64,000 bases of DNA from Halichondria panicea. Taxonomy: Eukaryota; Porifera; Demospongiae; Suberitida; Halichondriidae. Below are positions 36,001 through 44,019 of this stretch, in pieces. Position 1 is the first letter of the stretch. Every line of letters starts with the position of its first letter. The notes under the pieces are model-generated. The model had not been told where the DNA came from, searched no databases, and worked only from the letters and a program-made list of their open reading frames with translations. The stretch covers positions 2,035,501-2,099,500 of the forward strand of contig NC_087387.1 in the NCBI RefSeq assembly GCF_963675165.1. The letters are read 5' to 3'. The position numbers were made by a program, and so were the translations under genes.

Positions 36001-39000
36001 CAACACTTTGAGTAATGCCTACATATCCTGTCAAGGTTGGTCCTGCTAATTTTATAGTTTTCATGATGGTAATGTATTTTTTGCTCACCTCTCAAAGATC
36101 TAAACACTGTTTCTTCAAACTGCACAAACTGGGAGGTGAGACTAGAGAATGGCACCAACGTGAGAGAGGGTCGGCTGGAGGTGTGTCTCAACAATGCCTG
36201 GGGCACTGTCTGTGACAACGGTTTCAGTGATACAGACGCCACAATCGTCTGTGGCCAGTTGGGATTCGATAGAGAGGGTGAGTGCATGTACATGCATGCA
36301 TGTACTCATTCAGATTATCTGAATGCTTGTATTGTGTATAGGTGCAAGGGCTCAGTCTCAGTCAGACCTGGATATCTACCCTGGGACTGGACCCATCTTC
36401 CTGACTGACCTACTCTGTGATGCTCGTGACAACACACTATTTGACTGTCTGTTAAACGGAGGCTCCACCACTCTCAACACACTTGGACTCACCAGATGTG
36501 ATCATGACCAAGACATTGGTGTGGAGTGTAATGGTGCGTCAGACAGTACGACAATGCAGTCAAAGAGTCTATTTTAACCATAGTATACTATAGCCAATGA
36601 CCTTATTTCTGAATATCCACAATTTTTTATCTTCAAAAAAATAATACTGTCCTCAATAGCCACATGCAAGAATGATACCTCGACAACCACACGTGGGGCC
36701 TACAATTGGATGAGGATATTTGCCGAGGAGAGCGACTCTTTGTCATGTGTCTATGGAGCAGTGGACAGAGACAATCAAACACTGGTCAATCGTGGCATGG
36801 CTCTCAGATATTGCAATGAGTATGGCAATTGGGAAAAGGTGGACTTGAGAGACTGTCTCACTTTCACCAAATCTAGACTTCTAAACATTACTGGGGTAAG
36901 ATAGGAAAGATTCTCAGTATATTTAATAATTCTGCTTGTTTTAGAGTCGTGTAACAGACGATAACTTGGAGTCTGTCACTGTGAGGTTGATGGAAGCAGT
37001 CACCATGGCAACCACTGAAGAGGACCAAAGTTCCGATATTCTTGAAAGGATTGCGAATCTTGTTTCTGAAATAGGGCGCTGCACTTCGGAGAACAGGGTA
37101 AGCATACAGTGGTCAGACTGAGTCTTATTGATATCACCTATTATACCACCTCGATGCACAGTGCTCAGCAGAGCCAGCAGAGATTAACAACTTAGTGATG
37201 ACTTTGGAGATAATGCAAAACTGGAGACATGACACTCTCAGAAAGTTCTCAGCAAGGTAAGAAAAACTTATTCATGGGACTTCATGCACTCATGCATTGA
37301 TAAGCCATGCTTGTGTTTCTTGCTCACCCCAGGATTGCCCTGGATTTGGAGAGAGTAATATCAGACTACACAAGAGAGCTGAAAATACCGGAGGGAACTA
37401 CAAATGTTACAACTATTTTCACTTCTAAATCCATCACCTTCTTGGGATTTAAAGTGAGTATAGCCTTTCATTTGGTTATCTCTTAATTGATTATCATAAT
37501 TATTACTTTTCATAGGAGGAACAGATTAAACTAGAGAATAAAGGACTCACATTCTCTTCATCTGGTAATTATAGTGTCATGGCAAATGTTATGCTTATCG
37601 CTATATAATTAATAAGCTGACCAGTTTACTTAAGAGCAATAATTCTTATGTTTAGGAGGTTCCTTAGCGACTGATGAAGCTGGAACTGTGTACAGCAACG
37701 CTTTGGCTGTCCCTGCGGGTCTCCTATCAATCACCTTGCCTCAAGACCTTTTCCAAAACCTTTTCCAAAACCTGACGGCAGCTGATAACATCAGTGTTCT
37801 CTTCAACACATACGACTCTTCCGCTCTCTTCCCGATATCCAATGAGACTCAGTATAGACTCTCCAACATCACTGATCCAAAAGTAGTTGGTCGGTTTCAA
37901 GTGGCCTCCTCCCTAGTTTCAGCCACTGTGGTTGGCTACGATGTTCGTAATCTACCAAACAACACCAAGGTCACCATCATCCTGAAACTTCAGTCGAATG
38001 TGAGTTTATAAGATTTTTCTTACTGGTTATGTGTGATATGAACTCTTTTAGGAGTCCCAAGTACCTCTGTGTGTCTACTGGGACAAGAGTGCTCAAGGTA
38101 TGATGTATAGTAGTATGTGATGATGTCATATTAATCATAATTATGACACCACATCAGGTGGTCAGGGTGATTGGAGCACGGAGGGATGTGAGAGAGTTGG
38201 TGACAAGTTTCTGGACAGGGTAATCTGTCAATGTGACCACCTCAGCACATTTGGAGTGTTTGTGGTACGTTACATCCAATAACTGATATTCAGTTTTCAT
38301 TTTAAAGCAGATGTAATTAAAGACTAGCATGTGAAGTATAATTTTGCTCTCTCTCTCTCTCTCTGCAGAATATTGATCCTCTACCATGCGACACTGGCTT
38401 TTTGAGCAACCCCAGTGCCACAGAATGCATTCGTGAGTGCTTCTAATAGTATCTATACACAAAAATTTGTGGAGTTATGTGCACGTTGGTAGCTGATCTA
38501 CCTACCACATTTACATACGTCACCACATCATTGGTCAACAGCTGTATGATACATTAAGAAGAAGAACATAATTATAGCCCCAGGCATGCACATAGGTGTT
38601 TTCAAGTTTTTTTCAATTGTTCAATTCAAGAAAGTAAGTAAACAGAAAGGAGCCATGCTTGACGGTACAAAGTAACGGCAGAAATACGAAAGCTGCTCTG
38701 CAACAAGATGTCTAATTAAGCCTCCTGGGTCCATAGGATACATTTTAACTAAGGAGAGCCTTGCAAGCACAATACTTGGACCTAGGAAGCATCTATATAA
38801 GACGACGTGTTGCTTAACTAGCTCTTGCAAAATCCGGCATAGCCTCGCTTATTTTGTCAGTATGCATCGTGTATTCAATTGTTACTTAGGGGGAGGTACT
38901 TTTATAGTGCTTCGGTCACGTGGTATAAGTATATACCACACCTACTCGGAAAGATATGCACCCGTTCCCGTATATCTTCCGCATCCGTGGTTACATATCC

Positions 39001-44019: not shown

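What the first reader, a model, noticed from the sequence alone, without database searches (positions are those of the whole stretch)
36660..42007. Two complete HormR-GAIN-GPS modules in one adhesion GPCR
Each module has eight exons with the same phase series (1-0-0-2-0-1-0-1-0) and matching size order: 236/153/95/121/49/344/46/107 against 224/177/77/103/52/299/49/110 bases. Both GPS motifs keep four cysteines, two tryptophans and an HL-S or HL-T triad. Known adhesion GPCRs normally carry one GAIN next to TM1. Two self-cleaving points would give a three-fragment receptor, with the outer SRCR/EGF arm held only non-covalently. This could allow staged shedding.
Basis: partly seen in the sequence, partly recalled or inferred. 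Interest (0 to 1): 0.85.

Follow-up and report, generated by a model that had tools for sequence, protein, structure and literature searches.

The report
Adhesion receptor with two GAIN modules
A sponge-like animal genome encodes giant cell-surface adhesion receptors that carry two copies of the self-cutting GAIN module in a row instead of the usual one, which could let the long outer arm break away separately from switching the receptor on.

Summary
Profiles of each module match solved GAIN domains. It is not a one-off: two close paralogs match all 24 pre-tail exons (77-89% identity to the window by region), two distant genes have the tandem order, and a C13 gene pair shows a separate, younger GAIN duplication. 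Module 1 is under purifying selection (dN/dS 0.33-0.39). Two cuts are plausible but unproven. Most likely a receptor with two GAIN joints in series: a new variant of a known kind.

The parts
36660..36895 (+). Module 1 exon 1: HormR domain
   Evidence: Open exon, phase 1-0; HRM 15.5 bits, below cut-off
36945..37999 (+). Module 1 exons 2-6: GAIN subdomain A and start of B (36945-37097, 37162-37256, 37333-37453, 37516-37564, 37656-37999)
   Evidence: profile match to solved GAIN domains
38052..38264 (+). Module 1 exons 7-8 (38052-38097, 38158-38264): GPS; HL|S, cut expected between 38243 and 38244; Tyr at the S10.49 position at 38076-38078
   Evidence: GPS 53.8 bits; CVYW aligned with CVFW of ADGRG2; codons
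38369..38432 (+). Linker exon 9, short, two Cys
   Evidence: matched in L001 and L002, weaker candidates in L003 and L004
39067..39575 (+). Linker exons 10-11: Ig-like domain (39067-39231, 39282-39575)
   Evidence: Ig_3 E 1e-4 and I-set E 1.3e-4, both below the curated cut-off
39726..40288 (+). Linker exons 12-13: ferredoxin-like, possibly SEA domain (39726-39945, 40125-40288)
   Evidence: Predicted model pLDDT 76.5; SEA domain 2e7v first at Z 7.1 but tied with others
40337..40560 (+). Module 2 exon 1: HormR domain
   Evidence: HRM 13.3-14.6 bits, below cut-off; the ADGRG6 match spans profile positions 18-337
40636..41686 (+). Module 2 exons 2-6: GAIN (40636-40812, 40992-41068, 41131-41233, 41292-41343, 41388-41686)
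41741..42007 (+). Module 2 exons 7-8 (41741-41789, 41898-42007): GPS; HL|T, cut expected between 41986 and 41987; Ser at the S10.49 position at 41765-41767
   Evidence: GPS 50.1 bits; CVSW aligned with CVFW of ADGRG1
42082..44019 (+). 7TM and cytoplasmic tail (42082-42203, 42295-42563, 42671-42776, 42954-44019, stop)
   Evidence: 7tm_2 97 bits
1..36533 (+). Outer SRCR/EGF arm, in frame with module 1 (last SRCR exon 36342-36533 ends in phase 1); the whole arm was not spliced into one model
   Evidence: 56 SRCR and 63 EGF tblastn pieces, all on the + strand; last join checked; array continues upstream of the window

Best explanation
This is a giant adhesion GPCR of a probable sponge with two HormR-GAIN-GPS modules in series on one polypeptide: SRCR/EGF arm, module 1, Ig/ferredoxin-like linker of about 300 residues, module 2, 7TM. 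Shown: the open reading frame, GAIN homology of both modules by profile, the tandem order in four other genes of the class (one of them without an outer HormR), purifying selection on module 1. Inferred: one transcript; module 1 folds as a GAIN, cuts itself at HL|S in the window gene and holds the arm non-covalently; module 2 carries the tethered agonist beside TM1 as in ordinary adhesion GPCRs and gates signalling. The two GAINs then act as two joints on one line, the outer one a breakaway point for the long arm, the inner one the switch.
For: Open 25-exon model. Module profiles hit solved GAIN domains of ADGRG2, G6, F1, L3 (module 1, best E 3.2e-18) and ADGRG1, G6, L3 (module 2, best E 2e-17). 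Same 24 pre-tail exons in L001 and L002, distant L003 and L004. dN/dS of module 1 0.33-0.39 against 0.24-0.34 for module 2. GPS framework residues (four Cys, two Trp, two Gly, His, Phe) invariant in 5 of 5 module 1 copies. Introns of 52, 123, 95, 63, 216 and 51 nt from module 1 to module 2 in L001. Module 1 of window and L002 has HLS, Tyr at S10.49 and Gly-Cys; published work ties these to cutting (PMC13062082, passages). HLTNF invariant in 5 of 5 module 2 copies.
Against: No transcript or protein data. Outer nucleophile is Gly in L001 (HLG) and L003 (HAG). Ser at S10.49 in 5 of 5 module 2 copies suggests slow cutting there; but five of 19 other GPS loci also have Ser with an intact HLT (L008, L009, L010, L012, L016), and in ADGRB2 putting Phe there did not raise cutting much, so this sign is weak both ways. 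In isolated ectodomains L1 F803Y is treated among the slower variants. The structure model of module 1 was unusable (pLDDT 38, one sequence). The block 36660-40288 begins and ends in phase 1, so it could be skipped in frame.
Confidence: 0.5

Rival explanations
1. Same protein, but module 1 is mainly a structural or ligand-binding spacer. It keeps the GAIN fold and is cut little or not at all; only module 2 matters for signalling, and the receptor is at most a two-fragment one.
For: Nucleophile lost in 2 of 5 genes while the Cys/Trp framework is kept; ADGRB2 shows that HLS alone does not ensure cutting (PMC13062082, passages).
Against: The window, L002 and L004 keep Ser/Thr plus Tyr or Phe at S10.49 and Gly-Cys; exon 8, with the cutting motif, has the lowest dN of module 1 against the window (0.02 and 0.01), though between L001 and L002, where the motif differs, exons 2, 3 and 7 are lower.
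Confidence: 0.3
2. Module 1 is optional. Alternative splicing from the last SRCR exon (36533) to 40337 gives a single-GAIN receptor, or retention of the intron after 38264 gives a soluble module 1, so tandem receptors are one isoform among several.
For: The block 36660-40288 is phase 1 at both ends; reading on past exon 8 meets a stop after 5, 6 and 8 codons in window, L001 and L002, though a nearby stop is common by chance.
Against: No transcript evidence either way; dN/dS of module 1 is close to that of its neighbours.
Confidence: 0.12
3. Two neighbouring genes, or an assembly or splice-model artefact, rather than one double-GAIN receptor.
For: No RNA; the paralog models were found by searching with the window's own exons and phases.
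Against: Five genes of this class show the order; introns between modules are 51-216 nt in L001; in L005 and L006 the first GPS and the start of the next repeat unit lie in one uninterrupted ORF.
Confidence: 0.03

Closest known systems
Adhesion GPCRs with HormR-GAIN-7TM (latrophilin ADGRL, ADGRB, ADGRG6)
   Same: Module 2 plus 7TM has this order; both modules match solved GAIN domains of the family.
   Different: A second HormR-GAIN-GPS lies about 300 residues further out; the 2026 review describes the GAIN as located just outside the membrane (PMC13197933, passage).
SRCR-bearing adhesion GPCRs of the sponge Amphimedon queenslandica (Aq712029, Aq715659) and HRM-bearing ones (Krishnan 2014, PMC4302439, passages)
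   Same: SRCR repeats, and HRM, in N-termini of sponge adhesion GPCRs. SRCR is also reported in amphioxus ones (PMC2246102, passages).
   Different: The passages read do not mention two GPS or GAIN modules; the figure of domain orders was not seen.
ADGRF5/GPR116 (SEA plus GAIN cleavage; recalled, no call)
   Same: More than one cut point on one adhesion GPCR, and Ig and SEA-like domains before the GAIN.
   Different: There, as I recall, the further cuts are in a SEA domain or by furin; here it would be a second GAIN, and no G[ST][VIL] motif was found in the linker and no R.[KR]R motif in the model.

Membership tests
Adhesion GPCR (7tm_2 with membrane-proximal GAIN) | Class B2 seven-helix domain | tested here: met
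   7tm_2 97 bits against cut-off 20.6
Adhesion GPCR (7tm_2 with membrane-proximal GAIN) | GAIN/GPS directly before TM1 | tested here: met
   GPS 50.1 bits immediately before the 7TM; GAIN profile match
GAIN domain, module 1 | Homology to solved GAIN domains beyond the GPS | tested here: met
   ADGRG2 at profile positions 152-347 and ADGRF1 at 71-347
GAIN domain, module 1 | Fold shown by structure prediction | tested here: inconclusive
   Single-sequence model pLDDT 38
GAIN domain, module 1 | H-x-S/T cutting motif | tested here: met
   HLS in the window; but HLG in L001 and HAG in L003
GAIN domain, modules 1 and 2 | Aromatic residue at S10.49 found in efficient cutters | tested here: inconclusive
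   Tyr in module 1 (met), Ser in module 2 (not met)
GAIN domain, modules 1 and 2 | Actual autoproteolysis | not testable with these tools
   Needs expressed protein
HormR domain | Pfam HRM match over cut-off | tested here: not met
   15.5 and 13.3 bits against 26.2; matched at E up to 1 in 4 of 5 module 1 and 3 of 5 module 2 copies; so called HormR only by position and weak similarity
SEA domain (linker exons 12-13) | SEA fold and GSVVV-type cutting motif (motif recalled) | tested here: inconclusive
   2e7v SEA ranks first at Z 7.1 but tied with unrelated ferredoxin-like folds; no G[ST][VIL] motif

The most novel reading that the evidence does not exclude
The outer GAIN is a breakaway clutch in series with the signalling GAIN: under load it releases the giant SRCR/EGF arm before the inner one yields, so detachment is uncoupled from activation. 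One residue tunes this between paralogs: Ser/Thr gives a breakaway arm (window, L002, L004), Gly a hard-wired arm that passes force to the inner GAIN (L001, L003). Tandem GAINs arose at least twice in this genome.
Probability: 0.25. Interest if true: 0.82.

Novelty: new variant of a known kind. Interest (0 to 1): 0.62.

Why it matters
GAIN domains are thought of as the membrane-proximal switch of adhesion GPCRs. A receptor with two in series, in natural versions that do and do not keep the outer cutting residue, would make it directly testable whether cutting serves shedding, force-limiting or agonist exposure. If it folds and cuts, it would also show that the GAIN can work as a joint away from the 7TM within a receptor.

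Tried and rejected
Two-gene and artefact readings: rejected because of short introns in L001, one-ORF junctions in L005/L006 and five genes of the same order. Tree of 21 GAIN-B+GPS pieces: module 1 of the window class groups with L004 module 1 at 82/74, not starred; AU tests reject neither a module 2 clade with L004 (p 0.138) nor modules 1 and 2 of the window class being sisters (p 0.325), and the program warned of long branches, so the age and source of module 1 are open. SEA identity: Foldseek gave SAM lyase and MoaC first at TM under 0.5, VIA gave a SEA domain first but tied; left open. Structure of module 1 from one sequence: unusable. Literature: full-text searches (listings seen) for two GAIN domains, two GPS motifs, tandem GAIN, multiple GPS and the like listed nothing that I could recognise as describing tandem GAINs; term searches inside PMC11697300, PMC13197933 (first 300,000 characters), PMC12716839 and PMC13062082 found no 'two GAIN'. 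The library is open-access only and protein databases were not searched, so absence from print is not shown.

Full report
Observation. The window is G000:C11:2035501-2099500 of a 131 Mb genome in 39 contigs. Joined with the linker and 7TM exons they give one open frame of 1569 residues ending at 44019. The last SRCR exon (36342-36533) joins module 1 in frame.

Both modules are GAINs. Pfam sees GPS in both well above cut-off, HRM in both below cut-off, and no GAIN model. Profiles of five module 1 and five module 2 sequences match adhesion GPCR structures: module 1 best ADGRG2 3.2e-18, with ADGRF1 aligned from profile position 71 to 347; module 2 best ADGRG1 2e-17, with ADGRG6 aligned from 18 to 337. 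22 of the 27 distinct sequences listed for module 1 and 22 of the 25 for module 2 are adhesion GPCRs; the rest have E above 0.2. Modules 1 and 2 align with each other at 31% identity (hhalign E 4.5e-40).

Not a one-off. Of 68 GPS matches in the genome, 54 have a 7tm_2 match next downstream within 6 kb, 7 have another same-strand GPS first, and 7 have neither within reach (with a partial 7tm_2 list). The seven with a GPS first are the outer sites of the window gene, L001, L002, L003, L004, L005 and L006. L001 and L002 match all 24 pre-tail exons, with 77-95% identity by region among the three genes, 77-89% for the window against the others. The search for their exons was bound to the window's phases, but the joined frames are open: L001 1593 residues to a stop (the start of its tail exon is misplaced in that model, judged by the tblastn hit), L002 1225 residues without the tail exon. 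Whole-genome protein searches found just these three close copies. L004 reads SRCR-HormR-GAIN-GPS-Ig-HormR-GAIN-GPS-7TM; L003 sushi-like domains, GAIN-GPS, Ig, HormR-GAIN-GPS-7TM, with no HormR seen before the first GAIN (domain names there by eye). Identity of their modules to the like window modules is 24-35%.

A second origin. In L005 and L006 on C13 the two GAIN units are 83-88% identical in DNA, in L006 over one 1,885-base alignment. The first GPS, a Pro/Ser/Thr linker and the start of the next unit share one uninterrupted ORF. In the tree these modules sit with single-GAIN L015 (96/94) and L017 (97/97), away from the window class; the tree is rooted at its midpoint and the program warned of long branches.

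Selection and continuity. dN/dS is 0.33-0.39 for module 1, 0.31-0.36 for the linker, 0.24-0.34 for module 2 and 0.15-0.32 for three 7TM exons in three pairwise comparisons. In L001 the six introns from module 1 to module 2 are 52, 123, 95, 63, 216 and 51 nt.

Can both cut? PMC13062082 (passages) reports that H-x-S/T is not enough: a Phe or Tyr at S10.49 and a Gly before the GPS Cys mark cleavage-competent receptors; F803Y keeps full cutting in full-length latrophilin-1, though it is treated among slower variants in isolated ectodomains; ADGRB2 with Ser there was crystallised uncut, yet putting Phe in (with other changes) did little in that receptor. The profile alignments put this position at the residue before the first GPS Trp. 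Nucleophile / S10.49, module 1 then module 2: window Ser/Tyr, Thr/Ser; L001 Gly/Tyr, Thr/Ser; L002 Ser/Tyr, Thr/Ser; L003 Gly/Ser, Thr/Ser; L004 Thr/Phe, Thr/Ser; L005 Thr/Phe, Thr/Phe; L006 Thr/Phe, Thr/Phe. The His of the motif and the Gly-Cys are kept in all 14 modules (same calls). Five of seven genes have the cutting motif in both modules, two lack the outer nucleophile. The L001 codon is GGC where window and L002 have AGC. Among 19 other GPS loci scanned, 5 have Ser at this position, all with HLT (L008, L009, L010, L012, L016), 10 have Phe or Tyr, and 4 could not be read. Ser may therefore not abolish cutting here. By these published marks the outer module looks the better cutter in the window gene and the inner one the weaker.

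Mechanism. Most likely two GAIN joints in series on a very long arm. The review PMC13197933 (passage) cites GAIN-Stachel dissociation at about 95-160 pN for isolated domains, so a pulling line with two such joints would break at the weaker. Which one is weaker is unknown. Everything beyond sequence is inference.

Organism. 'Sponge' is inferred from the likeness to Amphimedon SRCR and HRM adhesion GPCRs and short introns; no call identified the species.

Noticed in passing
1-36533 and L027: 56 SRCR and 63 EGF tblastn pieces, all on the + strand, in super-repeats of some 5-7 kb (by eye), continuing through the 10 kb fetched upstream of the window; the full arm would be thousands of residues. SRCR/EGF pieces also lie upstream of module 1 in L001, L002 and L004.
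   Followed up: partly
L005 and L006 (C13:765600-771999, 775500-781999): Independent, younger tandem duplication of a GAIN module within adhesion GPCR genes, 83-88% DNA identity between units, with Phe at S10.49 and HLT in both units.
   Followed up: partly
Exons 4-5 (37333-37564) and 16-18 (40992-41343) against L001/L002: Mosaic relationship: in many other exons L001 and L002 are closest, but in these equivalent exons of both modules the window and L002 are closer by dN and L001 is divergent. Gene conversion or coordinated change of the two modules would explain it; the exons are short and the values noisy.
   Followed up: no
38433-39066: This intron is 634 nt here but 123 nt in L001 and L002; it holds a 23-nt inverted repeat (38928-38950 / 39001-39023), like a small inserted element.
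   Followed up: partly
49345-50094 and 59163-59621, minus strand: Two V-type ATPase 116 kDa subunit-like stretches (PF01496, E 3.1e-57 and 2.1e-18), perhaps tandem genes.
   Followed up: partly
G000:C9:6726902-6727519: A GAIN-like ORF with GPS (62.6 bits, CVYW, HLS) without a 7tm_2 match in the part of the list that I copied; the only match to the window's module 1 outside the three close copies (29% identity).
   Followed up: no
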